A program made the position numbers and the translations under genes. Under the pieces are notes generated by a model. That model was not told the DNA's origin. It saw nothing but the letters and a program-made list of their open reading frames with translations, and made no database searches. From contig NZ_JAHMIN010000030.1 of assembly GCF_018986435.1 (NCBI RefSeq), positions 1 through 51,761 on the forward strand: 51,761 nt of DNA, written 5' to 3'. Source of the stretch: Hahella sp. HN01. GTDB lineage: Bacteria > Pseudomonadota > Gammaproteobacteria > Pseudomonadales > Oleiphilaceae. Shown in pieces: positions 21,398 through 43,147 of this stretch. The first letter of the stretch is position 1. The number at the start of each line of letters is the position of its first letter.

Positions 21398-21877
21398 ATG
21401 GGATTTGCTTTATCCAACATGCAGCTTACCAGCGCGGTGTTCAGCAATGACGGCCGCATCCCAAGCAAACATACTGGCGAAGGCGAAGATGTCTCGCCGG
21501 CGCTATCCTGGTCGGGAGAACCGGCGGGAACGCAGAGCTTCGCCGTGGTCTGTCACGATCCGGATGCGCCCTTGATCGGCGCGAAGGGAACCTACGGCTT
21601 TGTGCATTGGGCGTTGTATAACATTCCTTCCAACGTGCACAGTCTTCCGGAAGGCGTCGACGCCTACGCCAGCGGCAGAACGGACTTTGGTAAAACCGGT
21701 TATGGCGGCCCCATGCCGCCGCCAGGGCACGGGACTCATCGCTACTACTTCTGGATTCTGGCGCTCAACGCCCAGCTGGATCTGCCGGAAGGACTCACTC
21801 TCTGGCAACTGCTGGAGAAAGTGGAGCCCCATGTCATCGGCATGAATCGACTGGTTGGCGTATATAGCCGCGGCTAG
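21398..21877 (+). CDS. YbhB/PEBP-family protein
   Basis: This 159-residue cytoplasmic protein has the phosphatidylethanolamine-binding fold motifs: VSPALSWSGEP, the DPDAP signature in VCHDPDAPL, and PPPGHGTHRYYFWILAL with the conserved GxHRY. It has about the normal length for E. coli YbhB/YbcL. Its biochemical role is unknown. It lies 40 bases after the hydrolase gene, likely in one operon, and its end overlaps the convergent methyltransferase by four bases. Confidence 0.9.
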   Translation: MGFALSNMQLTSAVFSNDGRIPSKHTGEGEDVSPALSWSGEPAGTQSFAVVCHDPDAPLIGAKGTYGFVHWALYNIPSNVHSLPEGVDAYASGRTDFGKTGYGGPMPPPGHGTHRYYFWILALNAQLDLPEGLTLWQLLEKVEPHVIGMNRLVGVYSRG

Positions 21878-22620
21878 CCCCCGTGGCGGCCGGCGAGGAT
21901 AAATACATCCATCGTCACCGGGCGGGTCTCCACCCCGCCCCAGGCTTCCTTCATTCGGGCGTAACTATCCGCGAAGAAGCTGTCGCCGCGATCTTCCATA
22001 CAGCGCCGGGTCGCCGACCAGCTATGCAGGTAGGAGAAAAATTCGTCCAGTGTCCAGGGCATGATCAGTTCAAACCGTGGCGTACGAATGGGTTCAAACG
22101 GAAAAGGAACCTCTTTGTATTCATTCCACAATAACAGGTTTTGCGGCGCCCAATAGGGTTCGATCACCTGCAACAGACTCTGTTCCAGAACGCCATCCAA
22201 TTCCATACCAAGATGCGGCCAGCTATAACCCCAGGCCGCAAACAACCCGCCCGGACGCAGCACCCGCTTCACCTCCGGCCAAAACTTCTCATAATCGAAC
22301 CAGTGCAAGGCCAAAGCGACGCAGACAGCGTCGAAATAATCATCGGGATAACCGGTCTTTTCACAGGGTTGCACGGCGTAGTGAACGCTATGATAGGTCG
22401 GCGCGTTTTCAATCTGCGCCGCACTGACGTCACTGGCTTCCACGACGGAAAAATACTCCCGCAAATCAGCCGCCGCCTGCCCATTCCCACAAGCCGCATC
22501 CCACACCCGCTCATGCCCGTCGCACGCATCCGCCAACCACTGATACAACGCCTTGGGATAATGCGGCCGCGCCTTCGCGTATATCTCCGCCTTATCATCG
22601 AACAGCTTCTGAATATCCAT
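21874..22620 (-). CDS. SAM-dependent class I methyltransferase
   Basis: This 248-residue protein has a Rossmann methyltransferase core: motif I VWDAACGNGQAAADL (about 40-54), an acidic end of strand 2 in VVEASDVSAAQI, YPDDYFDAVCVALALHWFDY at strand 4, and RVLRPGGLFAAWGYS at strand 5. This set is typical of the UbiE/TAM-like family, including trans-aconitate-type enzymes. The substrate is unknown. It is a single gene on the minus strand. Confidence 0.85.
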   Translation of the reverse strand: MDIQKLFDDKAEIYAKARPHYPKALYQWLADACDGHERVWDAACGNGQAAADLREYFSVVEASDVSAAQIENAPTYHSVHYAVQPCEKTGYPDDYFDAVCVALALHWFDYEKFWPEVKRVLRPGGLFAAWGYSWPHLGMELDGVLEQSLLQVIEPYWAPQNLLLWNEYKEVPFPFEPIRTPRFELIMPWTLDEFFSYLHSWSATRRCMEDRGDSFFADSYARMKEAWGGVETRPVTMDVFILAGRHGG

Positions 22621-22967
22621 GTCCCCTCATCCTTAACAGTTTGAAAAGCATCAAAGATTCATTAGTGACTATTACTTGTTTGAAGGGAAATCGCAAATGC
22701 GCGAGGCAGGATAGTGGTTGGCTAAAGCAGCTTTAAATAACGCTAGAGCTTGTAGTCTTCCGCACAGTAAATATGGCTACCGGATAAGGATATTTTTTCA
22801 ATGAACGACCGCCGACTGGAATAAAAGGTCGGGTATTTTATGAGGTGAAGCCGTGCATGCCTGGCACAATAATGGGCAGTGTTTTCGGTTGTCGGTCGGA
22901 TCGCTTACAACCAAGAAGCGGCGCAGGTATCCGCATCAATGCATTGACTACTCAGAAATGAGGCAGA
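22621..22967. other. Intergenic region, no gene seen
   Basis: This contains the promoter side of the methyltransferase gene and the downstream side of the next minus-strand gene. Only a 34-codon frame without support is present. No repeat or RNA structure stood out. Confidence 0.4.
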
Positions 22968-23408
22968 TTAGCCACCCAGCACAACTTTCCGCCCCTGAGT
23001 CATAACGAAGGTTTTATCCCAGCCGCTCAATAACACATGCGCCTTTCGCAACTGCGCTCCGAGGGTCCGAGGAACCTCTTTGAAAGGCTTACGCGAGAAC
23101 AGCACGAAGGTTTTAAAATACCGATGCCCATAGGGAGTTCCATCTGCAATCTCGACGTTAGCGCCAGCGGAAAGCTCGTAAGGAATGTCTTCGAAGAAGC
23201 GCTCGTAACGATCGCCTTTTTCATCAAGCTCCATCCACAACTCAATCCAACGACAGATCTCCCCTGGCCGCTGAATCCTGATCCGCGGATAGCGTCCCAA
23301 CGCGCGGCGATTGACATACTCATACCCGGCAACTTCACAGAACCGGTCCACACAAGGCATCACCCGCTGCAGATGTTCATTCAGCTCCTCAAACTGACGC
23401 TCGTTCAT
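22968..23408 (-). CDS. Conserved-looking orphan protein
   Basis: This 146-residue basic protein begins MNERQFEELNEHLQRVMPCV. A beta-rich middle follows (YPRIRIQRPGEICRWIELWME; YGHRYFKTFVLFSRK). Coding composition is convincing, but I do not recognise the family. It lies downstream of the carbamoyltransferase gene on the same strand, with a hairpin between them. Confidence 0.6.
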   Translation of the reverse strand: MNERQFEELNEHLQRVMPCVDRFCEVAGYEYVNRRALGRYPRIRIQRPGEICRWIELWMELDEKGDRYERFFEDIPYELSAGANVEIADGTPYGHRYFKTFVLFSRKPFKEVPRTLGAQLRKAHVLLSGWDKTFVMTQGRKVVLGG

Positions 23409-23476
23409 TTTTCACTCAAATCAATAAATTACATCCAGATTAACAGCTTAATTCAAGCGCATCCGCAGGAGTAGCC

Positions 23477-23501
23477 ATCCCCCGCTCGCACGGGGGATTT
23501 T
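23477..23501 (+). terminator. Hairpin between carbamoyltransferase and orphan gene
   Basis: ATCCCCCG pairs with CGGGGGAT around a six-base loop. The T-stretch follows on the plus strand, opposite to the genes, so on the minus strand it may only weaken read-through. Confidence 0.35.
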
Positions 23502-23529
23502 GGTTGTGGATCACAAGCGGATTATTGGA

Positions 23530-25314
23530 TCAAATCCCCACGTTTTCCGGGTAAAGGCTGCCCAGGCTTTTTTCCCACTCTTTTTTCTCATCCACTTTGC
23601 TGGGTTCCTGGGCGACGGCGGCTTTTTCTATCAGGCAACCGTCGATGACCAGGGCGTCCAGGGCGCATTCCATGAAGAAGTCGAGGGCTTCTTTGGGGGT
23701 TTCTACGATGGGCATGCCTTTCTTGTTGAACGAGGTGTTGAGCAGTACGGAAACGCCAGTGAGTTCGCCAAATTTGTTTAGCAGCCGATAGTAGTTGGGC
23801 GACACGGACTCGGTCACCGTCTGCACTCTGGCGGAGCCGTCGGCGTGGACGACGGCGGGGATTTCTTGTTTCCACTCTTGCCGGGTTGGCGCCACCAGAA
23901 TCATGTAGGGGCTGGGATAGTCGCAGTCAAAATAGACGCCGGCTTTTTCCAGCGGCACGGAGGGTGCGAATGGCCGGAAGTCTTCGCGGAATTTAACGTT
24001 GCGGTTGATATGCTCGCGTACGTCCGGGTTACGTGGGTCCGCCAGAATACTGCGGTGTCCCAGGGCGCGCGGCCCAAATTCGGAGCCTTTTTCAAACCAG
24101 GCGACCACTTTGCCGGCGGCCAGCAATTCCGCGGTACGATTGATCGCTTCGTCTTCCGGCAGGCGTCGGTAACTGATTTTTCCGGCGTACGTCTGCATGG
24201 CGGGATACAGTTCCTCCGCTTCGTAGGACTTGCCGAAATAAGGCGACGCGTCGTGCTTGATCCGCTCCTGCCCCAGCACTTCCAGCCAGCCGTAATAGGC
24301 GCAGCCGATAGCCAGACCGTTATCCGCCGCGGCAGGTTGAAAATAGAAATCCTCGAAGCCGGTCTGCTTCAACAGCTTGGCGTTGGCCACCGCATTGAGC
24401 GCCACGCCGCCGGCGTATCCCAGGTTTTTGTGGGGTTGATGCTCGAAGCGATGGTTCACCAGATACAACAACGCGCGCTCAATCTCCCGCTGCATCCAAT
24501 AGGCGATATCCGCGTAGTAGTCGAAATTCTCCGCCAGATCTTCATAGCGAACCCGCGGCCGATCGAAGTGCTTCATCCAGTCATAATTGACGAACACGCG
24601 TCCGTCGCGACATTCGAAGGCCTGAAAATCATAAACGCCAGGACGTCCATAAGGCGCCAGCCCCATCAGTTTGCCCGGGTCTTCCATGCCCTGAAACACA
24701 TACTGGCTCACGCCGGAATACAGCCCACCGATGGAGTGTTTGGTGGTCGGCGGGCACATGGAGTATCCCTTGAGAAAATAGCCGAAAGGAGAGAAATCTT
24801 TGTAAACCGGACGCAGCTTTCCTTTCTCGTACAGGTAATAACTGTCCTTTTCGAAGAACAGATGATTATTGTCAGAATCCGGTTGCGGCTCCGGCAGATG
24901 AGCGCCGTCGAGATCCAGACAGTCGTCCCAACTGCTGCCGCAGCCATCGATCACCAGCACCGCCATTTCATCAAAGGGACTGGTTCCCACTACGCTGTAG
25001 GCATGCGCCAGATGGTGAGAAATGGTGACGGTTTTAACGTGATCCGGAATGATCCGCGGTTGCCCATGAAAGATCTTGTTGCCGCGATCAAAGTTGCTGA
25101 AGTTCGCGTTCTGCACCACCACCGCCACATCGTCAAAGCTGATGCCCTCGGCGTCCAGACAATATTGCATCGCCTCGCTGTCGCAAAAACCGTCATGCTT
25201 GATGCGGGTGATCCGCTCTTTCTCGATGGCCACGCACACCTCGCCATCTTTTAACAGGCACGCTGAACCGTCATGGGACAGTCCGGTTCCCAGCACATAA
25301 ATTGGTTTAGACAT
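23530..25314 (-). CDS. NodU/TobZ-family O-carbamoyltransferase
   Basis: The protein has 594 residues from the second ATG (25314); the first ATG at 25320 touches the ribosome binding site. The N-terminal Kae1-like domain starts YVLGTGLSHDGSACL and has the metal-binding H-x-x-x-H at 100-104 (SHHLAHAY). The C-terminal YrdC-like domain includes FEKGSEFGPRALGHRSILAD and KFREDFRPFAPS. Family members transfer carbamoyl from carbamoyl phosphate, through carbamoyl-AMP, to hydroxyls of sugars or natural products (NodU on Nod factor, TobZ on tobramycin). The acceptor here is unknown. The gene follows the cupin-like gene by 11 bases, so they are co-transcribed. Confidence 0.9.
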   Translation of the reverse strand: MSKPIYVLGTGLSHDGSACLLKDGEVCVAIEKERITRIKHDGFCDSEAMQYCLDAEGISFDDVAVVVQNANFSNFDRGNKIFHGQPRIIPDHVKTVTISHHLAHAYSVVGTSPFDEMAVLVIDGCGSSWDDCLDLDGAHLPEPQPDSDNNHLFFEKDSYYLYEKGKLRPVYKDFSPFGYFLKGYSMCPPTTKHSIGGLYSGVSQYVFQGMEDPGKLMGLAPYGRPGVYDFQAFECRDGRVFVNYDWMKHFDRPRVRYEDLAENFDYYADIAYWMQREIERALLYLVNHRFEHQPHKNLGYAGGVALNAVANAKLLKQTGFEDFYFQPAAADNGLAIGCAYYGWLEVLGQERIKHDASPYFGKSYEAEELYPAMQTYAGKISYRRLPEDEAINRTAELLAAGKVVAWFEKGSEFGPRALGHRSILADPRNPDVREHINRNVKFREDFRPFAPSVPLEKAGVYFDCDYPSPYMILVAPTRQEWKQEIPAVVHADGSARVQTVTESVSPNYYRLLNKFGELTGVSVLLNTSFNKKGMPIVETPKEALDFFMECALDALVIDGCLIEKAAVAQEPSKVDEKKEWEKSLGSLYPENVGI

Positions 25315-25325
25315 AAACATTCCTT

Positions 25326-26240
25326 TTATTCGGTTTTTGTCAGTCGTTTGGGTGCGAACAGCAAGTCATAAAGCAGCTTGCCGGTAGGAGGCGTACTAAA
25401 TAATCGCTGGTTGTAAGCGCGGCCTAACACACCGTGCCAGAGGAAGTCGCGGAGGATGCGAAACCATAAATGCCGCCCCGCCAGATTCACCCCGCGCGCC
25501 TGCTCGGCGATGGTGAGCGGCGCGCCATACCAACAGGACAGCGAGATCGACGGCCCGGGGGACGAAAAGTGATGCCACCAGCCACGGGGGAAAAATAAAA
25601 TGTCGCCGGGTTGCAGGCGGGCAATCAGGGTTTGCGCCTTGGCGAAGCGGGGATAATGCATCAGATCAGGACGTTCCGGGTCTACCCGACTCTTGGAGAT
25701 GCAGTCGCCAAAGGGATATAAATTACGCGCTTCCTGCGGAGCCAGCAGGATCGCTTTTTTCTCTCCGTAAACCTGCACGAACAGGTTGTCCATATTGTCG
25801 TAATGCAGTCCCGAGCGGGTCTTGGAGCCGATCCAGAGACTGGTGAAGTTCAGCCCTGGAGGAATAAACTGCTGGTAGCAATAATCCTCCTCCAGACCGC
25901 TAAAAGAGTGCACGTCGGTCTGGTCGACATAACAGGCGTCGCCCGTCTCCAGAATGTCGATAAACTCGCTCAGGTACATCTCTCTGCGGTGATGTTTTTC
26001 GGTGCTGAAATAGGGAGCGCCATAGGCGGGCAACTGCAAGGACGGGCGCACTTGTTGCGAGGCGAAACGTCGTCGAAAGTAATCCGGCGTCCATTTCTCC
26101 AGCGCCGGCCACGCCAGCGCGCCTCCGCTCAGAATCACCGGTCGCGATGACTCCTGACATAACGCGGCGAACCTTTCACTGTCCTCTGCATCCAGACGTT
26201 CCACCTCGGACTGCAAGCCGTAACTCTTTTCCTTGTTCAT
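25326..26240 (-). CDS. JmjC/cupin-8-like protein 1
   Basis: The protein has 304 residues from the ATG at 26240, nine bases after AAGGAG; the ATG at 26249 abuts that site. It is a cupin-like JmjC fold with the Fe(II) triad pattern: LHYDNMDN supplies H-x-D and GWWHHFSSPG the distal His. Related bacterial proteins are Fe(II)/2-oxoglutarate hydroxylases of proteins, peptides or small molecules. GLHYDNMDNLFVQVYGEKKA and LQPGDILFFPRGWWHH are the usual spacing. Downstream is the carbamoyltransferase and upstream a second cupin-like gene. Confidence 0.82.
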   Translation of the reverse strand: MNKEKSYGLQSEVERLDAEDSERFAALCQESSRPVILSGGALAWPALEKWTPDYFRRRFASQQVRPSLQLPAYGAPYFSTEKHHRREMYLSEFIDILETGDACYVDQTDVHSFSGLEEDYCYQQFIPPGLNFTSLWIGSKTRSGLHYDNMDNLFVQVYGEKKAILLAPQEARNLYPFGDCISKSRVDPERPDLMHYPRFAKAQTLIARLQPGDILFFPRGWWHHFSSPGPSISLSCWYGAPLTIAEQARGVNLAGRHLWFRILRDFLWHGVLGRAYNQRLFSTPPTGKLLYDLLFAPKRLTKTE

Positions 26241-26350
26241 GACAGGCATCTCCTTGGGAAGAGATTTTATTGGGGGCGTGGCGGAAGATACGACAGAGCG
26301 ACGACGGAGCCTCAGGCGATCATCCTGATAACCCCGTCGCGTTCTAACCC

Positions 26351-27250
26351 CTAAACCACATCAGCCGGTCTGCGCAAACCGTCGATAACGCCATTAACGG
26401 TCATCAGACCCAGTTGGGACAGGTACAGCGCCAGTCCCAGTTTATTGCTGGTCAAACGGGAGAACGGCTTGACCCGCCAGAAGCGATTGACCGAGCAGGT
26501 GTAGAAATCCTTGCCGATGCTGGACAGTTCATGCCACCAGTACACGGGGATGAACAGCACCTCGCCTTTACGCAGCACCAGCTCGATTTTGTGTTTCATG
26601 GCTTCCCGCAGTTTCGGGTAGGCGTCGTAATCCGGCTTCGCCACGTAGACCTTGCTGAACCAGGGCGCAGCGGGGCTGCCGTATAGTGAGAAGGGATACA
26701 GGTTTTCACTTTGTTCCGGCGGAAACAGCACCACTTTCTTGGCGCCGTGCAGCATCAGCACCGTGCCCTCCCCGCAATCCCAATGCAACGGTTCGGTGTG
26801 GCCGCTGGGCCCCAGCCAGAGGAACATGTCCGTGGCTTTCTGCATATCGCAACGCTCGGAAATATTACCCAGCGCGCCTCGCAGCACATTGGCCAGCGGC
26901 GTATCGCCGATGGCGACCTGTCCCATGTAATGATTGTTCTTGCGCGCGTAATCGCTGGTCAGCTGCAATGCATAATCAGCGAGTTTCATCTCCTGATAAT
27001 CGCAGTATTTGCTCCATTCCGATTTGGGCTTGTTGAAGTGTCCAGGGCCGTAGCAGCGCACGGGAAATTTACGATCGCCAACCTCGCGACACATAAATTC
27101 AAGGGACCAGTTTTTGGCGTCGTTCAGAGCGCCGGTGATGATCAGGGGGCGACTTTTGCGCCGGTATTCCGAGTGAAACAATTGGGGGGTGATTTGAGAG
27201 ATATCCAGACGATCAACGGGACACGCCTCGACGTCAGCAAGTTTTTCCAT
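26351..27250 (-). CDS. JmjC/cupin-8-like protein 2
   Basis: The protein has 299 residues from the ATG at 27250; a TTG four codons earlier is also in frame. The putative Fe(II) ligands are His and Asp in PLHWDCGEG and His in YWWHELSS. The fold and length parallel the neighbouring cupin-like protein, but sequence similarity between the two is low, so they are not recent duplicates. It is the first gene of a minus-strand operon with that protein and the carbamoyltransferase. A role as a second hydroxylase on the same product is an inference. Confidence 0.8.
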   Translation of the reverse strand: MEKLADVEACPVDRLDISQITPQLFHSEYRRKSRPLIITGALNDAKNWSLEFMCREVGDRKFPVRCYGPGHFNKPKSEWSKYCDYQEMKLADYALQLTSDYARKNNHYMGQVAIGDTPLANVLRGALGNISERCDMQKATDMFLWLGPSGHTEPLHWDCGEGTVLMLHGAKKVVLFPPEQSENLYPFSLYGSPAAPWFSKVYVAKPDYDAYPKLREAMKHKIELVLRKGEVLFIPVYWWHELSSIGKDFYTCSVNRFWRVKPFSRLTSNKLGLALYLSQLGLMTVNGVIDGLRRPADVV

Positions 27251-27726
27251 GTCGCTTATCAACTTTTATCTTGTTGTTATATGAGGTTACCTCCGCACGT
27301 TTTTGGCGCCCATACGTGCGGCTGCGACAGCCCTTGTTGAACTCCCTGACGGGCTGCGCCCTGCTCTGGAGGGGCTTCCCGGAAAAATTAATTTTTCCTT
27401 CTAAATCAGTCCTTTCTATAAATTTTGGACCAGACGGGACGCCCCCTGCGCGAGCAAGGTAGCGATAAGTATAGTTAAGCGAGAAAAAATCGGTAGCGGA
27501 TTCTCAGAAAATATTTTTCCGCGCGCGCAAGTGCAGGAAATATTAGAAATATCGGCGCAAAGCTCCTAGAATGATTTCGCACACTATGGAAGGGTGATCG
27601 AAAAACAGGAAAATGCTGTATTTACAGGGCTTTGTCCGCTCTCTATCTATTCTTCCCCCAGCACCCGTCTGACAGAAATACAAAAAGAATCCCTTATCAC
27701 CCGGACATGGGCGGTCGCTGCGTTAT
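27251..27726. other. Divergent intergenic region with 18-bp palindrome
   Basis: This 476-bp gap separates the minus-strand cupin operon from the plus-strand exporter. It contains a perfect palindrome GGAAAAATTAATTTTTCC (27381-27398) that could be an operator. A hairpin CGCACGT / ACGTGCG (27295-27320) lies about 50 bases before the cupin start. I searched both strands for a precursor-peptide gene and found none convincing; a 63-codon plus-strand frame has no ribosome binding site. Confidence 0.5.
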
Positions 27727-29403
27727 ATGGAATTTCTGAACTTTATTAAACGGGAACACGCGGACTTCAATTATTACGCGCTGGCGATGGTGGTGGTCAG
27801 CGGTATGCTCAACGGCGTCATCGCCGTCATCGTTATTCACGCCGCGCAACACGCCGCCCCCCATGAACTGAACTTCCGCTACCTGCTGATGTTCGCCGTC
27901 GCCCTCGCCGCATTCTGGCTCAGCAAACGCTATACCCTCAATTACAACACCACCCAGGTGGAGCATGTCCTTGAGCGCATCCGCACCCGCATCGCCGATA
28001 AGATCCGCAAAACGGATCTGCGCGCGTTTGAGAAAGTGGGCCGCGGTCGTATGTATTCAGTGTTGAACACGGAAACCCTGACGCTGTCGCAATATACGCC
28101 CTTCATTATCAACGCCATCGGCTCTTTTGTGATGGTGATATTCGCGCTGATGTTCATTGCTTATGTGTCCACCACCGCCCTGCTCCTCACCGTGCTGACC
28201 ACTGCGCTCTGTCTGCTTTATTTTTTCGCTCGTCAGCGCGTATTGCACCGTAAGCTGCACATGGCGTCGGAGAAGCAGAATGAGTATTTCGACGCTCTTG
28301 GCGAACTGTTGGACGGCTTCAAGGAGCTGAAGATCAACCCGTCGAAAAGCAACTGTTTCTACCAGGAGCGTTTGCTGCCGCTCTCCAACAGTATGGAGAC
28401 GCTGAAAATAGAAACCGGTCTGGCGTACAACAACCTCAACGTCTTCACCCAGAGTTTCACCTTTATTCTGATGGCGTCCATCATCTTCCTGATTCCGATG
28501 ATCAGCGCCTCTTCCACAGAGAGCATTCCCAAGCTGGCGGCCATCATGCTGTTCGTCATCGGCCCCTTGAGCGAAATCGTCGGCGTGGCGCCATTGATCG
28601 CCAAAAGCAACGTGGCCATCGTCAATATTCAGCGTCTGGAGACAGAGCTGGACGGTTTGCGCAGCATGGAATCGGACCAACTGACGCACTTCTCCGATGA
28701 GGACGCCCTCGCACAGAATCAGGAAGCGCCGTTCCAGGAAATTCGCTGCGATCACCTCAAATTCAGCTACAACGAAAACGGACAGCCAGGCCCGGGACAA
28801 GCCAAAGGCTTTACCGTCGGGCCTATCGATCTGACGATCAAACGGGGCGAGATCATCTTCATGATCGGCGGCAACGGCAGCGGCAAGTCCACCTTTCTCA
28901 AGCTGCTGACGGCGCTATACCAACCCGATACCGGCAGTATTTTGCTGGACGGAAGCCCCCTGCACGCCAACAACATGCTGCAATACCGCAGCCTGTATTC
29001 CGTCATCTTTTCCGACTTCCATTTGTTCAAGCATCTGTATGGCGTGGACGTCAAAGATCGCAGCAAAGTGAAGCGCCTGCTGGAGCTGATGAAACTGTCA
29101 GAGCGTTGCCAGATCAAGGACAACGAAATCAGCGACATCAAGCTGTCCACCGGCCAGAAGAAACGTATGGCGCTGATTGTGTCCTTGCTGGAGGACAAAC
29201 AGATCTATGTTTTCGATGAATGGGCGGCGGATCAGGACCCGGATTTCCGGCGCTATTTCTATGAGACCATCCTTCCCGAAATGAAGGCGCAGGGTAAAAC
29301 CATTATCGCGGCCACCCACGACGATCATTATTTCGATATCGCTGACCGGGTGATCAAACTCGACGCTGGCAAAATAATCACAAATCCTAGTCTGCACATT
29401 TAA
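27727..29403 (+). CDS. Cyclic-peptide-type ABC exporter (PvdE/SyrD/YojI group)
   Basis: This 558-residue half-transporter has an N-terminal membrane domain with six hydrophobic segments (to about 300) and a C-terminal ATPase. Walker A is GGNGSGKST, the signature is LSTGQKKR, and Walker B is IYVFDEWAADQD, followed by HDDHYFDIADR. The LSTGQKKRMALI variant is typical of the group that exports cyclic or modified peptides such as PvdE and MccJ25-exporting YojI. No peptide synthetase or precursor is visible here. It is divergent from the carbamoyltransferase operon. Confidence 0.85.
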   Translation: MEFLNFIKREHADFNYYALAMVVVSGMLNGVIAVIVIHAAQHAAPHELNFRYLLMFAVALAAFWLSKRYTLNYNTTQVEHVLERIRTRIADKIRKTDLRAFEKVGRGRMYSVLNTETLTLSQYTPFIINAIGSFVMVIFALMFIAYVSTTALLLTVLTTALCLLYFFARQRVLHRKLHMASEKQNEYFDALGELLDGFKELKINPSKSNCFYQERLLPLSNSMETLKIETGLAYNNLNVFTQSFTFILMASIIFLIPMISASSTESIPKLAAIMLFVIGPLSEIVGVAPLIAKSNVAIVNIQRLETELDGLRSMESDQLTHFSDEDALAQNQEAPFQEIRCDHLKFSYNENGQPGPGQAKGFTVGPIDLTIKRGEIIFMIGGNGSGKSTFLKLLTALYQPDTGSILLDGSPLHANNMLQYRSLYSVIFSDFHLFKHLYGVDVKDRSKVKRLLELMKLSERCQIKDNEISDIKLSTGQKKRMALIVSLLEDKQIYVFDEWAADQDPDFRRYFYETILPEMKAQGKTIIAATHDDHYFDIADRVIKLDAGKIITNPSLHI

Positions 29404-33731: not shown

Positions 33732-33769
33732 TTGACAAAATAGTCTTTTTGTTATGTTATAACATTTAC
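33732..33769 (+). promoter_or_regulatory. Promoter with overlapping Zur box
   Basis: TTGACA at 33732 and TGTTAT at 33755 are spaced 17 bases. The second element lies within GTTATGTTATAACATTTAC (33751-33769), whose core ATGTTATAACAT is a perfect palindrome matching the proteobacterial Zur operator. Zinc-loaded Zur would thus block RNA polymerase. The gene served is a COG0523 GTPase, a typical Zur target. Confidence 0.75.
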
Positions 33770-33803: not shown

Positions 33804-35021
33804 ATGCGTAAATTACCTGTGACCGTGCTGTCGGGATTTCTCGGCGCAGGAAAAACCACCCTGCTCAACCATATTCTGCAAAACCGGGACGGCCTCAAAG
33901 TCGCGGTCATCGTTAACGACATGAGCGAAATCAACATTGACGCCAACCAGATCAATCGCGAGGTGAATCTGAATCGCGCGGAAGAGAAGCTGGTGGAAAT
34001 GAGCAATGGCTGTATCTGCTGCACCTTGCGTGAGGATCTACTACAGGAGGTGTCCCGTCTGGCGCGGGAGGATCGTTTCGATTATCTGGTCATTGAATCC
34101 ACCGGCGTCTCCGAACCCCTGCCGGTAGCCGAGACATTTACGTTCAGGGATGAACATGGCGAGAGCCTGGCGGATATCGCCCGTCTGGATACCTTGGTCA
34201 CGGTGGTGGATGGCGTCAATTTCATGCGCGATTATGAAAACGCCGCTACGTTGCAGGAGGTCGGCGAGTCGTTAGGGGCTGAAGACGAGCGCAATGTCGC
34301 CGAACTGCTGGTGGAGCAGATCGAGTTCAGCGACGTACTGGTAGTGAGCAAGCTTGACCTGATCAGTCAGGCGGAACGGGAAGAGTTGTTTTCCGTACTG
34401 CGCAAACTTAACCCGGACGCCGATATCGTGGCGGCCTTGATGGGACAGGCGCCGCTGTCTAAAGTGTTAAACACGGGAAGATTCGATTTTGAGAAAGCCT
34501 CCCGCGCGCCGGGTTGGCTGCAGGAGTTACGTGGCGAGCACAAGCCGGAGACCGAGGAGTATGGCATCGGCAGCATCAGTTTCCGCGCCCGTCGCCCTTT
34601 CCATCCTGAGCGCTTCCAGCAATTTCTGGAAAGAGACTGGAATAATGGCCGTTTGCTGCGCTCCAAAGGGTATATCTGGCTGGCCAGCCGCCCGTATGAA
34701 GCCGGAAGCTGGTCCCAGGCCGGCGGCGTGATGCGTTACAGTTACGCAGGCCTGTTCTGGGCTGGTGCGCCACAGGAATACTGGCCTCAGGATGAAGACT
34801 CCCTGCGTCTGATTCGCGGTAACTGGCTGGAGCCTTACGGTGATCGGCGACAGGAGCTGGTGTTTATCGGACAGGGAATCGATTGGGACCGATTACGAAC
34901 CGAACTCGACGCCTGTTTATTGACGGATGCGGAACTGGCTCAGGGCGAAAAAGTCTGGGTGACCTACCCTGACCCGCTGCCGGCCTGGCGTTCGTTTCAA
35001 GATGAAAGGGAATCGGCGTAG
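33804..35021 (+). CDS. zigA: COG0523 metal-chaperone GTPase (ZigA/YeiR type)
   Basis: This 405-residue G3E-family GTPase has Walker [10 protein letters not shown] (11-19), the metal-binding CxCC motif at 70-73 ([11 protein letters not shown]), [12 protein letters not shown] for magnesium and base contacts, and SKLD as guanine specificity loop. The C-terminal CobW_C domain is complete ([17 protein letters not shown]). Under zinc starvation such proteins are thought to deliver zinc to key enzymes. AGGAG precedes the ATG. A Zur box overlaps the promoter, and a strong terminator follows, so the gene is an independent unit. Confidence 0.85.
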
Positions 35022-40075: not shown

Positions 40076-41323
40076 TTAGTCTGCCAGCGCCGTCTCATGA
40101 GCAGATTCGCGCCCAACAGCATCCACTGAGTTGGCGACCGCCAGCGCTTCCCTCACGATCGCAACGATATCTTCCCGCGACGCCAGCGCCTGCTCACCGC
40201 CACGTCGACGCACTACGATGGAGTTGTCCGCCATTTCCTGCGCGCCGGCGATCAAGACAACGGGCGTTCTGCTCCGCCTCAGCAGCTTCATTTTTTTCGC
40301 CAGGGAAACATCGTCCAGGTCCATTTCAACGGGGACGCCGTGACGCCTCAACAAATCGCCAACGCTTTCACAATAGGCGACTGAGTCTTGCCCCACTGAC
40401 GCCAGCACCACCGGTTGCGGATGCACCCAGGCCGGCAGCGCCGCCTGATAAGACTCAAGCAGCACGCCGATCCAACGCTCAATGGAGCCATACACTGCCT
40501 GATGCAAAATCACCGGCCGGCGCCGTTCGCCGGCGGCGTCGATATAATGCAGGTCAAAGCGCTCCGGCATGTTGAAGTCCAGCTGGATAGTGCCCATCTG
40601 CCATTGACGCCCCTGCCCGTCCTTGAGCGCCAGTTCAATCTTGGGACCGTAAAATGCGCCCTCGCCTTCCTGCCGGACAAACTCCGCGCCAGCCGCTTCA
40701 CAGGCCGCCGCCAGCATGAGTTCGGCGCGCTCCCAATCTTCCGGCGCGCCAAAGTAGTCCCGCTGCGGGCGAGTGGATATGAATACCTGTGGGCGTCCGT
40801 ATCCGTAATCCGCATACACGCGCTCGGCCCGGCGCAAAAACGCCTGAATCTCGTCGCTGACCTGATCCCAGCGACAGAAAACGTGTGCGTCGTCCTGAGT
40901 GAACTGGCGCAGACGCATCAACCCGTTCAAGGCCCCGGAGCGTTCATTGCGGTGCACCGAGCCAAACTCGAACAAACGCAATGGCAGAGACTTGTAACTG
41001 CGCACGCCTCGCTTATACAGCAGAATATGCGCTGGACAGGACATGGGCTTCAGCGCATATTCCGGCTCGTCACCAAACCCGGCGCCGACAAACATGTCAT
41101 CGGCGTATTTTTCCCAATGTCCGGAAGTCTCCCACAGCTCCCGCTTCAAAAGCTGCGGCGTGGCCACTTCCTGGAAGCCTTCGGCTTCATAGGCGGCGCG
41201 AATATGGTTTTTAACAGTCCGGAACATCCGCCAGCCGCGCGGATGCCAGAACGCCATACCGGGCCCCTGTGGTTCTGAATGGAATAGATCGAGTTCTTCT
41301 GCGATATCGCGATGATTTTTCAT
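40076..41323 (-). CDS. Short threonyl-tRNA synthetase (no editing domain)
   Basis: This 415-residue class II synthetase comprises the catalytic domain (about 20-310) and the C-terminal anticodon-binding domain (about 315-405). Zinc ligands are present: Cys in KPMSCPAH, His in FTQDDAHVF, His in VILHQAVYG. Motif 2 is HRNERSG and motif 3 GSIERWIGVLLE. Normal bacterial ThrRS has about 640 residues with N-terminal TGS and editing domains, both missing here, so it is a second, specialised enzyme that cannot proofread Ser-tRNA in cis. TAGGAGG precedes the ATG. Expression is predicted to be controlled by the attenuator just upstream. Confidence 0.9.
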   Translation of the reverse strand: MKNHRDIAEELDLFHSEPQGPGMAFWHPRGWRMFRTVKNHIRAAYEAEGFQEVATPQLLKRELWETSGHWEKYADDMFVGAGFGDEPEYALKPMSCPAHILLYKRGVRSYKSLPLRLFEFGSVHRNERSGALNGLMRLRQFTQDDAHVFCRWDQVSDEIQAFLRRAERVYADYGYGRPQVFISTRPQRDYFGAPEDWERAELMLAAACEAAGAEFVRQEGEGAFYGPKIELALKDGQGRQWQMGTIQLDFNMPERFDLHYIDAAGERRRPVILHQAVYGSIERWIGVLLESYQAALPAWVHPQPVVLASVGQDSVAYCESVGDLLRRHGVPVEMDLDDVSLAKKMKLLRRSRTPVVLIAGAQEMADNSIVVRRRGGEQALASREDIVAIVREALAVANSVDAVGRESAHETALAD

Positions 41324-41387
41324 GGTTCGCCTCCTACGGCTTCGTTTTCAGTACAAGTTCAGGACCCGAAACGAAAACAAGAAGGCG

Positions 41388-41448
41388 AAAAAAAACCCTC
41401 CGGCTCTCGCTCGGAGGGTCCTTTTTCTTCAGACGCGCACTACCCTCC
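41388..41448 (-). promoter_or_regulatory. Threonine attenuator: terminator and antiterminator
   Basis: On the minus strand, ACCCTCCG (41419-41412) pairs with CGGAGGGT (41402-41395) around a nine-base loop and is followed by eight T, forming the terminator. The segment GGAGGGT at 41448-41442, within the last codons of the leader peptide gene, can instead pair with the first terminator arm. Ribosome stalling at the leader Thr codons would favour that pairing and read-through into the synthetase gene. Confidence 0.85.
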
Positions 41449-41499
41449 AAGCCATTTGGTGGTGGTGCGGGTGGTCGAAAAAAGATTGATGAGTTTCAT
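41440..41499 (-). CDS. Threonine-codon leader peptide of the attenuator
   Basis: The reading frame encodes MKLINLFSTTRTTTKWLGG and stops at TAG (41442-41440). Five of its codons 9-14 are ACC (Thr), interrupted by one CGC. An in-frame ATG four codons earlier (41511) would add MFAH. Its last codons overlap the antiterminator strand, as expected of an amino-acid-sensing leader. The ribosome binding site is not strong. It is too short for ordinary gene callers. Confidence 0.82.
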   Translation of the reverse strand: MKLINLFSTTRTTTKWLGG

Positions 41500-41626
41500 G
41501 TGGGCAAACATAGCATCGAAATCAATGCAGCGGCAATCCTAATGAGGAATAATTTTAACGCCCAATGGACGCCCTGCGGCGAAAAACTAAACTTTACTAT
41601 GCAGTCGTTAGAAATGGAGGTCCGAT

Positions 41627-43147
41627 ATGTCACGCACATTTGAGCGTCAAGACGCCCCTTTCCCTTCCGATCGTTCTACTTCCGACCATTCCGATATACC
41701 TGCTCCCCCCTTACACACGCCGTTTATGCGCCGTCACATTCGCGCAGCGGCGGATCACCTGCGCAATGACTCCGAGCAATTGCGACAATGTTCTCCCGAA
41801 CAGCAGCTGTATCATCACTATATCGACGCCGGCGAGCCTCATGGCCCGCCGCTGTATGCAGTAAAAGGCGAACACTGGAACGGGGTCTGCCCGGGATTTC
41901 TGGATTTTATCAATCAGTTCACCTTTCGCCCTGAAGATATGGGGTACGCGGAGTGTGGTTACGGCATTCAGCGTCATCGCGACTTCCTGCATCGCCTGAT
42001 TCTCGCCGAGCATGATCTGCATTCGCTGCTGCAAGGCTTCGCCGGCCGTATTGACGTTGGCTGTCTGGCGATGACGACGCGCATGGCCATGTACGATCTG
42101 GCGAAAGTCGCATATCGGCAATTTAAGGCTCGCTGGCCTGAAGCCGCGCCAGTAGCGCTGGTTCCCACACCCAGCTGGGACTATCGAGGGATTTTCAAAG
42201 ATGTGGGCTTTGAAGTGGTCTATCTGCCCATCCGGCCGCAACATGGCTGGCGGCCCAATTTATCGGAATGGAAAGACATTATCGGCGACCTGCGCGGACT
42301 GCAAAGCCGACGCATTGCGCTCGCCGTCAGCAACCCGCAGCATAATCCCACCGGCATGCAGTGGCCGACGGAAGTGACGGAGCACCTGTTACAGGTTTGC
42401 GCCGAGGAGTCCGCTTATTTGCTCCTGGATGACGCCTACTTCAATGTGCACGACCCCAGAACGCCAATAGTGAACCACCTGAAGGCGCTCTTGCAGGCTT
42501 TTGATCAACATGGCGGAGACAACGCGCTGGTTCGCTCCGGCATGTTTGAACGCTGGGTCTCCACGCGCCCCTTCGGCAAGCAATTCAGTTGCAACACCAT
42601 GGGCGTGGCGGCGATCACGACATCTCCCCTGCTGTTGCGTCAGCTAGCGCGAGAATCCTGGATCAACCGCTATCACTGCAATACCCACAACGCGGAAGTC
42701 ATGTGCGCCTGGCTGGCCACCCAAGACGCCGCGGACTGGACGGTAGAAACCGGGCTGCAGTACGCACGACAGAAAGAACATGTGAAACAGTTTCTGGTGA
42801 CGCACCTGGGTTGGCCGCAAGACGAAGTCTGCATCGGCCCCTCCACGTCTTACATGATTTTCGCCGTGCCCGAGGTCTACCAGAAAGAACCCGCCGGCAT
42901 TGATCACTTCCGCGACGACCTGTTCTACGCTACCGGCACGATGTTATGCGCGTCGCTGTTCAATCAACAGGCCCCGGCCCCCTATGTGCGGCTTCACCTG
43001 GGAAGTCATCCCGATATCATTGATGAGATTTTGAGGCGCTGGAGCACAGGCGGATTGCACTATCGACAGAAAGGCCCATTTGCAGGCCAGGAAGCGTTAA
43101 AGGCACCGCTGCCTCAGCAGCGGTTTCGAACGCAGGCTGAAAGCTGA
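41627..43147 (+). CDS. PLP-dependent class I/II aminotransferase-like enzyme
   Basis: This 506-residue fold-type I PLP enzyme has SNPQHNPTGMQ for cofactor contacts, LLLDDAYFNVHD with the pyridine-binding Asp, and STRPFGKQFSCNTMG with the Schiff-base lysine. An additional N-terminal region of about 90 residues and a C-terminal tail make it longer than typical transaminases. GGAGG lies six bases before the ATG. It is divergent from the short ThrRS gene and its attenuator, so control by threonine is possible but unproven. The substrate is unknown; amino-acid-tailoring PLP enzymes of antibiotic pathways are distant relatives. Confidence 0.78.
   Translation: MSRTFERQDAPFPSDRSTSDHSDIPAPPLHTPFMRRHIRAAADHLRNDSEQLRQCSPEQQLYHHYIDAGEPHGPPLYAVKGEHWNGVCPGFLDFINQFTFRPEDMGYAECGYGIQRHRDFLHRLILAEHDLHSLLQGFAGRIDVGCLAMTTRMAMYDLAKVAYRQFKARWPEAAPVALVPTPSWDYRGIFKDVGFEVVYLPIRPQHGWRPNLSEWKDIIGDLRGLQSRRIALAVSNPQHNPTGMQWPTEVTEHLLQVCAEESAYLLLDDAYFNVHDPRTPIVNHLKALLQAFDQHGGDNALVRSGMFERWVSTRPFGKQFSCNTMGVAAITTSPLLLRQLARESWINRYHCNTHNAEVMCAWLATQDAADWTVETGLQYARQKEHVKQFLVTHLGWPQDEVCIGPSTSYMIFAVPEVYQKEPAGIDHFRDDLFYATGTMLCASLFNQQAPAPYVRLHLGSHPDIIDEILRRWSTGGLHYRQKGPFAGQEALKAPLPQQRFRTQAES

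What the first reader, a model, noticed from the sequence alone, without database searches (positions are those of the whole stretch)
41388..41499. Complete threonine attenuator before a second ThrRS gene
A 19-residue leader MKLINLFSTTRTTTKWLGG has five ACC codons in six positions. Its end overlaps GGAGGGT, which competes for the first arm of an 8-bp terminator followed by eight T, 65 bases before a strong ribosome binding site. All elements of ribosome-mediated attenuation are in place. Gammaproteobacterial thrS is classically controlled at translation, so a Thr leader on a synthetase gene is unusual.
Basis: partly seen in the sequence, partly recalled or inferred. Interest (0 to 1): 0.8.

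Follow-up and report, generated by a model that had tools for sequence, protein, structure and literature searches.

The report
Threonine attenuator on backup threonyl-tRNA synthetase
A spare enzyme that loads threonine onto its tRNA, one that lacks the usual proofreading part, sits behind an RNA switch that should turn it on only when loaded threonine tRNA runs short, and the same enzyme-plus-switch pairing recurs in distant bacteria.

Summary
On the minus strand a 19-codon leader (41499-41440) holds five ACC codons in six. It is followed by a terminator (41421-41388) and a short ThrRS gene (41323-40076). The leader's last codons pair over 11 bp with the terminator's first arm. In ribosome-position folding this antiterminator forms only when a ribosome stalls at the Thr codons.

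The main addition is comparative. This ThrRS lacks the editing domain and is a second copy. Editing-less ThrRS from five family codes of Pseudomonadota and from Burkholderia, Caballeronia and Acaryochloris plasmids form one clade (SH-aLRT 99). All 18 counted have a Thr-rich leader; at least 5 Thr in 8 codons in 14 of 18, against 1 of 120 full-length thrS genes. All 8 genomes checked also keep a full-length thrS.

Ribosome-mediated attenuation of synthetase genes is known, and a weak Thr leader before Streptomyces thrS is in print, so this is a new variant. No expression data exist. Unforeseen: the thrS2 ribosome-binding site is sealed in a hairpin in 4 of 4 genus members. The natural trigger (ThrRS inhibitors, zinc or threonine shortage) is open.

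The parts
41507..41536 (-). putative sigma-70 promoter: -35 TTGCCG (41536-41531), 18-nt spacer, -10 TATGTT (41512-41507); would put the transcript start at or within a few nt of the leader ATG
   Evidence: 8 of 12 matches, 26 of 500 shuffles as good (weak alone); a pair 6-7 nt before the leader ATG was found for 11 of 16 leaders scored, none by the rule for the other 5
41440..41499 (-). leader peptide ORF MKLINLFSTTRTTTKWLGG-stop, five ACC Thr codons (41475-41470 and 41466-41458)
41432..41475 (-). protector hairpin (1:2) formed by the Thr-codon block and the leader end when no ribosome is present
   Evidence: MFE folds; limits approximate
41442..41452 (-). antiterminator 5' arm (region 2) GCTTGGAGGGT, inside the leader's last codons
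   Evidence: invariant in 4 of 4
41409..41419 (-). antiterminator 3' arm (region 3) ACCCTCCGAGC, overlaps the terminator's first arm
41388..41421 (-). intrinsic terminator: 8-bp core ACCCTCCG (41419-41412) with CGGAGGGT (41402-41395), two further G-U pairs possible; T8 at 41395-41388
41326..41389 (-). hairpin that sequesters the thrS2 Shine-Dalgarno sequence: TTCGCCTTCT (41389-41380) with AGGAGGCGAA (41335-41326) and an inner extension
   Evidence: -25.4 to -26.5 kcal/mol, SD unpaired 0.00 against 0.16-0.18 for shuffled linkers; 4 of 4 genus members
40076..41323 (-). thrS2: 415-aa threonyl-tRNA synthetase with catalytic and anticodon-binding domains, no editing domain
   Evidence: (TIGR00418 427.8 bits, profile positions 171-551)

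Best explanation
It is a classical ribosome-mediated transcription attenuator that reads charged tRNA-Thr and controls an auxiliary, editing-less threonyl-tRNA synthetase. Transcription starts at or next to the leader ATG (inferred). With enough Thr-tRNA the ribosome runs to the leader stop and covers region 2, so the terminator forms (inferred from folds). When Thr-tRNA is scarce the ribosome stalls on the ACC codons, region 2 pairs with region 3, and RNA polymerase reads on into thrS2 (inferred). The gene makes a second ThrRS only when the housekeeping ThrRS fails to keep tRNA-Thr charged, whether because it is inhibited, has lost zinc, or lacks threonine. Tight shut-off would make sense for an enzyme that cannot remove mischarged serine. 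Shown here by sequence: the anatomy, the lack of the editing domain, its status as a second copy, and recurrence of the gene-plus-leader pair across distant bacteria. Not shown: regulation and enzyme activity.
For: Anatomy. Folding of the window transcript through region 3: antiterminator probability 0.98, 0.99, 0.99, 0.79, 0.53 with the A site on Thr codons 1-5, and 0.00 both without a ribosome and at the stop codon. Rfam Thr_leader RF00506 is the best sub-threshold match in the right place and strand, model positions 1-118 of 118, 24.2 bits, E 0.019. Editing-less ThrRS form one clade, and 18 of 18 counted carry a Thr-rich leader; at least 5 Thr in 8: 14 of 18 versus 1 of 120 full-length genes, Fisher 8e-15 (the 18 are about 8 lineages, not independent). 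Terminator within 130 nt: 13 of 16 versus 17 of 109. Both plasmids of an Acaryochloris strain have two such attenuators in series. A full-length thrS is also present in 8 of 8 genomes checked and in the window's genome. Zinc-ligand residues (their identity recalled) are kept.
Against: On the completed window transcript the terminator wins at equilibrium at every ribosome position, so the switch must be kinetic. In B. arboris the modelled 6-bp part of the antiterminator stays free with the ribosome at the stop codon (0.90), and in Acaryochloris attenuator 2 it forms without any ribosome (0.95-0.99), so the simple model does not fit those two. Three of 16 leaders (Caballeronia, G603, G651) fail the terminator rule. 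In the aligned register the 2:3 stem is 3 of 6 pairs in G430 and 5 of 6 in G600, G603, G619 and G690 (G430 has a 9-bp pairing in another register). The 3:4 stem hardly varies, so there is little covariation to judge by. The sealed Shine-Dalgarno in the window genus means read-through alone may not give protein. Fifteen of 120 full-length genes pass the looser threshold of 4 Thr in 8. No transcript or protein data.
Confidence: 0.85

Rival explanations
1. thrS2 is a zinc-starvation paralogue repressed by Zur, like the Zur-linked thrS copies of other proteobacteria; the leader is secondary or relic.
For: Zur-regulated ThrRS paralogues are described (PMC2770081, section 10 read). A ZigA gene lies 5 kb from thrS2, with a Zur-like box (33749-33765; motif recalled) before it. 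The Acaryochloris short thrS genes sit near cysS and folE (pREC1) or a Fur-family gene (pREC2).
Against: No Zur-like box between 41324 and 41626. The exact pattern GTTATANNATAAC has no match in the short-thrS loci from outside the genus held; in the genus loci L082-L084 its one match is about 6.3 kb from thrS2. The same pattern matches 5 (L095, L098-L101) of the 8 loci that I judge to be zinc clusters with thrS; L097, L139 and L141 have none, and only the L095 box is directly before thrS. None of these 8 showed a Thr leader. Cyanobacterial Zur boxes differ and were not tested.
Confidence: 0.06
2. Translational rather than transcriptional control: the hairpin on the Shine-Dalgarno sequence is the real switch, and the Thr leader works through it.
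For: SD sealed in 4 of 4 genus members, and also in G600 (0.00, 0 of 100 shuffles as low); in B. arboris and G725 freeing the terminator's second arm raises SD accessibility from 0.34 to 0.81 and 0.86.
Against: In the window genus freeing region 4 does not open the SD (0.00). In 10 of the 15 leaders folded, SD accessibility is not clearly lower than with shuffled linkers (29-87 of 100 as low). Most leaders have a terminator with a U-tract (13 of 16).
Confidence: 0.12
3. The short protein is not a protein-synthesis ThrRS but an amino-acid-activating or regulatory paralogue.
For: It is divergent (43% to the cell's own ThrRS) on a long branch, and lacks the N-terminal domains.
Against: Residues 1-380 of 415 align with solved ThrRS, with Cys in KPMSC, His in DDAH and His in ILHQ kept (their role as zinc ligands recalled). 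No biosynthetic partner gene was seen among the neighbours scanned.
Confidence: 0.07

Closest known systems
Ribosome-mediated attenuation of the auxiliary, antibiotic-resistant TrpRS gene of Streptomyces (Vecchione and Sello 2010; seen only as a reference in PMC4787780; content recalled)
   Same: A second synthetase gene behind a leader peptide rich in the cognate codon; induced when charging fails
   Different: Other amino acid, enzyme family and phyla; here the spare enzyme lacks editing; resistance to any inhibitor is untested
Bacillus subtilis thrZ (Putzer 1992; seen only as a reference in PMC4787780; content recalled)
   Same: Second ThrRS gene induced by poor tRNA-Thr charging through antitermination
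   Different: thrZ uses a T-box that binds tRNA; no Rfam T-box match here, and the sensor is a translated leader
thrL leader before thrS of Streptomyces lividans (PMC8079986, passages read)
   Same: Thr-containing leader peptide proposed before a thrS gene
   Different: That leader has two Thr and no clear terminator; here a full 1:2/2:3/3:4 set precedes an editing-less second copy
Enterobacterial thr operon leader (Rfam RF00506)
   Same: Thr-codon-rich leader with competing hairpins and a U-tract terminator; best sub-threshold Rfam match, 24.2 bits
   Different: Below the curated score (55 bits) and controls a synthetase instead of biosynthesis genes
Anabaena T2 ThrRS (PMC4787780, passages read)
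   Same: Editing-impaired second ThrRS made only under stress; T2 lacking its N1 and N2 subdomains has null editing activity
   Different: T2 itself keeps the editing domain and is Zur-controlled

Membership tests
Ribosome-mediated transcription attenuator | Short leader ORF rich in codons of the regulated amino acid | tested here: met
Ribosome-mediated transcription attenuator | Mutually exclusive antiterminator and intrinsic terminator, the first exposed only by a stalled ribosome | tested here: met
   for the window (kinetic switch; equilibrium always favours the terminator). Not cleanly met for B. arboris or Acaryochloris attenuator 2
Ribosome-mediated transcription attenuator | Read-through depends on charged tRNA of that amino acid | not testable with these tools
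   needs expression data
Rfam RF00506 Thr_leader | Score at or above the curated gathering score | tested here: not met
   24.2 against 55 bits; nothing at gathering
T-box | Match to the T-box covariance model | tested here: not met
   no T-box match at gathering in the window or 16 loci, nor at E up to 5 in 41280-41660
Zur-regulated ThrRS paralogue | Zur box in the promoter | tested here: not met
   gammaproteobacterial-type box only, motif recalled
Threonyl-tRNA synthetase (TIGR00418) | Score above the curated cut-off | tested here: met
   427.8 against 383.65 bits
Threonyl-tRNA synthetase (TIGR00418) | N-terminal TGS and editing domains of bacterial ThrRS | tested here: not met
   profile positions 171-551 only; Pfam shows catalytic and anticodon domains only
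ObaO-type self-resistant ThrRS | Ser in place of Gly463 (E. coli numbering) | tested here: not met
   AFYGPK keeps Gly (marker from passages of PMC11252418); Met at 489 is shared with the cell's own main ThrRS

The most novel reading that the evidence does not exclude
There is a distinct, horizontally spread family of 'emergency' threonyl-tRNA synthetases that lack proofreading and travel with their own Thr-tRNA sensor, in gamma- and betaproteobacteria, another (probably alphaproteobacterial) class of the phylum, and a cyanobacterium. When the housekeeping ThrRS is knocked out (by a natural ThrRS inhibitor or zinc loss), the attenuator opens and a synthetase that may mischarge serine takes over. 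That would be either inducible resistance to ThrRS-targeting antibiotics or programmed, stress-gated mistranslation.
Probability: 0.35. Interest if true: 0.8.

Novelty: new variant of a known kind. Interest (0 to 1): 0.6.

Why it matters
It ties a defined, recurrent sensor (Thr-tRNA charging) to a defined, recurrent effector (a ThrRS without proofreading), which makes the purpose of spare synthetases testable. If inhibitors are the trigger, the leader is a ready reporter for ThrRS-targeting natural products and the gene a cryptic tolerance determinant. If zinc or stress is the trigger, it is a case of regulated mistranslation. The KPMSC signature together with short length and the leader gives a way to look for the family in other genomes.

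Tried and rejected
Zur control of thrS2: looked for and not found. ObaO-type resistance residue: Gly463 conserved. A conserved gene neighbourhood that would name a function: 9 neighbours at two loci and 10 at six more show no shared family; a 710-aa ORF stands upstream at both L104 (phospholipase C) and L159 (same length, not scanned). In the genus, two genomes without thrS2 (G004, G006) keep the divergent aminotransferase-like gene with no leader beside it, so that gene is not tied to thrS2. Phage carriers: the 36 phage records hit were all under 60% identity and were not followed; viral contigs gave none. A Cys-rich leader on the neighbouring Acaryochloris cysS: sequence viewed, not analysed further. 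An anticodon-like loop in the SD hairpin was considered and not tested. An alignment made with wrong orientations and one with a reversed row were discarded. A first Fisher figure with 7 of 120 for the 4-Thr threshold was wrong because 8 of 9 new controls also passed it; the corrected count is 15 of 120.

Rows dropped before the 18-versus-120 count: duplicate loci of the same genes (L076-L079, L082-L084; L096, near-identical to L104; L164, same place as L148), L003 (weak match, not taken as a ThrRS), rows cut by contig ends or with broken or doubtful frames and therefore not classed (L058, L067, L132, L141), and full-length genes with under 250 nt of upstream sequence. L058 and L141 were not examined further. 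Starts of full-length genes were taken as the first ATG, GTG or TTG of the open frame.

Full report
What is there. The window is contig C57 of an unnamed 7.1-Mb genome. I think it is Hahella, from recall only. On the minus strand lies a leader ORF, 41499-41440, MKLINLFSTTRTTTKWLGG, with five ACC codons in six positions; then a terminator with eight T, 41421-41388; then a 415-aa ThrRS gene, 41323-40076. The ThrRS matches TIGR00418 above its cut-off but only over profile positions 171-551, and Pfam shows the catalytic and anticodon-binding domains alone, so the TGS and editing domains are absent. The genome has a normal full-length thrS elsewhere, 43% identical. The gene seems to stand alone: it is convergent with the gene on its left and divergent from an aminotransferase-like gene on its right.

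How the switch is built. The end of the leader, GCTTGGAGGGT, pairs over 11 bp with ACCCTCCGAGC, which overlaps the terminator's first arm. Without a ribosome the Thr-codon block itself pairs with the leader end. On the transcript as far as region 3, the antiterminator forms with probability 0.98, 0.99, 0.99, 0.79 and 0.53 when the A site is on Thr codons 1 to 5, and 0.00 without a ribosome or with the ribosome at the stop. On the complete transcript the terminator wins in every case, so the switch would be kinetic. A promoter-like pair, TTGCCG-18-TATGTT, ends 7 nt before the leader ATG; it is weak by itself (26 of 500 shuffles as good). Such a pair 6-7 nt before the ATG is found for 11 of 16 leaders scored (none by the rule for the other 5; Acaryochloris not scored), with exact TTGACA-17-TAGATT six nt before ATG in four of them. 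The leader is therefore probably transcribed with its start codon at or near +1.

Chance. Dinucleotide shuffles of the intergenic region gave 10 of 2000 with 4 Thr in 8, 1 with 5, and 0 with terminator and antiterminator too. The bare Thr-codon pattern occurs 25 times in the genome, so the combination is what counts.

Relatives in the genus. Four of seven genus members (own genome included) have thrS2, at 91-93% identity to the window's. Leader, Thr block, GGAGGGTAG and terminator are kept in all four; the first residues of the leader vary. Two members without thrS2 (G004, G006) keep the divergent neighbour gene with no leader beside it; the third, G003, has neither gene.

Relatives outside. 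A plasmid search led to short ThrRS in Burkholderia arboris, two Caballeronia strains and two plasmids of one Acaryochloris strain. Each has a Thr-rich leader, and both Acaryochloris copies have two attenuators in series. The short enzymes share Ser in KPMSC (1 of 87 full-length genes) and Phe at position 50 (0 of 87). A DNA pattern for KPMSCP.H hit 11 of 398 phylum genomes; besides the window's own, 8 of the 10 others are short ThrRS and 2 full length. All 8 short ones have a Thr leader. They lie in family codes f210, f228, f235 and f238, which with the window's f1 makes five; f228, f235 and f238 belong to another class of the phylum. This pattern selects for the signature and is no measure of total prevalence. 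In one genus, of the Burkholderia type by 88-90% identity to the B. arboris enzyme, 3 of 13 genomes have it, so it is patchy. All 8 genomes also hold a full-length thrS.

Statistics. After dropping duplicates and broken rows (listed under Tried and rejected), 18 of 18 short genes have an ORF with at least 4 Thr in 8 within 350 nt, against 15 of 120 full-length genes, of which 8 are one conserved ORF of a single genus. At least 5 in 8: 14 of 18 against 1 of 120. The exception is a full-length second thrS on a Qipengyuania plasmid (L102), itself a candidate for the same control. Terminators by one fixed rule: 13 of 16 against 17 of 109. The short genes are about eight lineages, not 18 independent cases.

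Tree. In quick IQ-TREE trees the short enzymes are one clade: SH-aLRT 87 (95 rows, 8 short); 93 after thinning the full-length rows and 95-98 with one short lineage left out; 99 with 19 short rows of 87. The two full-length KPMSC enzymes L147 and L151 fall outside. Hahella-type and Acaryochloris-type branches are long and join each other, which the tool flags as possibly false; dropping either leaves the rest together. One origin with horizontal spread of gene and leader is the simplest reading, not proven.

What weakens it. In B. arboris part of the antiterminator remains free with the ribosome at the stop (0.90), and in Acaryochloris attenuator 2 it forms without a ribosome (0.95-0.99). Caballeronia, G603 and G651 fail the terminator rule. 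The aligned 2:3 stem is incomplete in five of ten leaders of the B. arboris type, though G430 has a 9-bp pairing in another register. In the window genus the thrS2 Shine-Dalgarno is locked in a hairpin of about -26 kcal/mol that freeing the terminator arm does not open; I cannot explain this.

Rivals and context. A Zur-like box (motif recalled) stands before ZigA at 33749-33765 but none stands before thrS2. The exact pattern matches 5 of 8 loci that I judge to be zinc clusters with thrS (L095, L098-L101; not L097, L139, L141) and none of the short-thrS loci from outside the genus held. Acaryochloris short thrS does sit among zinc-linked genes, so zinc loss by the main ThrRS remains a possible trigger upstream of the same sensor. 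ObaO's resistance residue is absent.

Known or new. Passages of PMC8079986 report Thr, Trp, Leu and Ala leaders before synthetase genes of S. lividans, the Thr one with two Thr and no clear terminator. Section 10 of PMC2770081 describes Zur-linked ThrRS paralogues. Passages of PMC4787780 describe an editing-impaired stress ThrRS and its reference list cites thrZ and the TrpRS attenuator. The listings of my searches of the held library showed no paper on a Thr attenuator before an editing-less ThrRS; most subscription papers are not held. Rfam has only a sub-threshold Thr_leader match. I therefore file it as a new variant of a known kind.

Noticed in passing
window 41326-41389 (minus strand): The thrS2 Shine-Dalgarno sequence is fully paired in a long hairpin in 4 of 4 genus members; its role is unexplained.
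   Followed up: partly
L094 2665-2970, L103: Two Thr leaders, each with a terminator, in series before the Acaryochloris short thrS.
   Followed up: partly
L102 about 2039-2112: Thr-rich leader MTPMRITTTTTTTPGNRGWSVAA before a full-length second thrS on a Qipengyuania citrea plasmid.
   Followed up: partly
L151: Short ORF MIMQLNRTTTTS upstream of a full-length thrS that carries the KPMSC signature.
   Followed up: no
L166, L167, L169-L174: Conserved small ORF of the form MTPRTLTET..(S)ERR/DRR 103-156 nt before the main thrS in 8 of 9 genomes of one genus; meaning unknown.
   Followed up: no
L093, L142, L148, L149: Downstream of the terminator, CTCCGT-type segments can pair with the Shine-Dalgarno ACGGAG and, in L093, L142 and L148, with the terminator's second arm, suggesting a possible second switching layer.
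   Followed up: partly
window 33749-33765: Zur-like box upstream of a ZigA zinc-chaperone gene at 33804-35021.
   Followed up: partly
window 21874-29403: Methyltransferase, NodU-like carbamoyltransferase, two cupin_8 proteins and a cyclic-peptide-type ABC exporter lie together; possibly a small biosynthetic cluster.
   Followed up: no
L103 910-1052: Cobalamin riboswitch near a gene annotated as cobalamin-independent methionine synthase on the same Acaryochloris plasmid.
   Followed up: no
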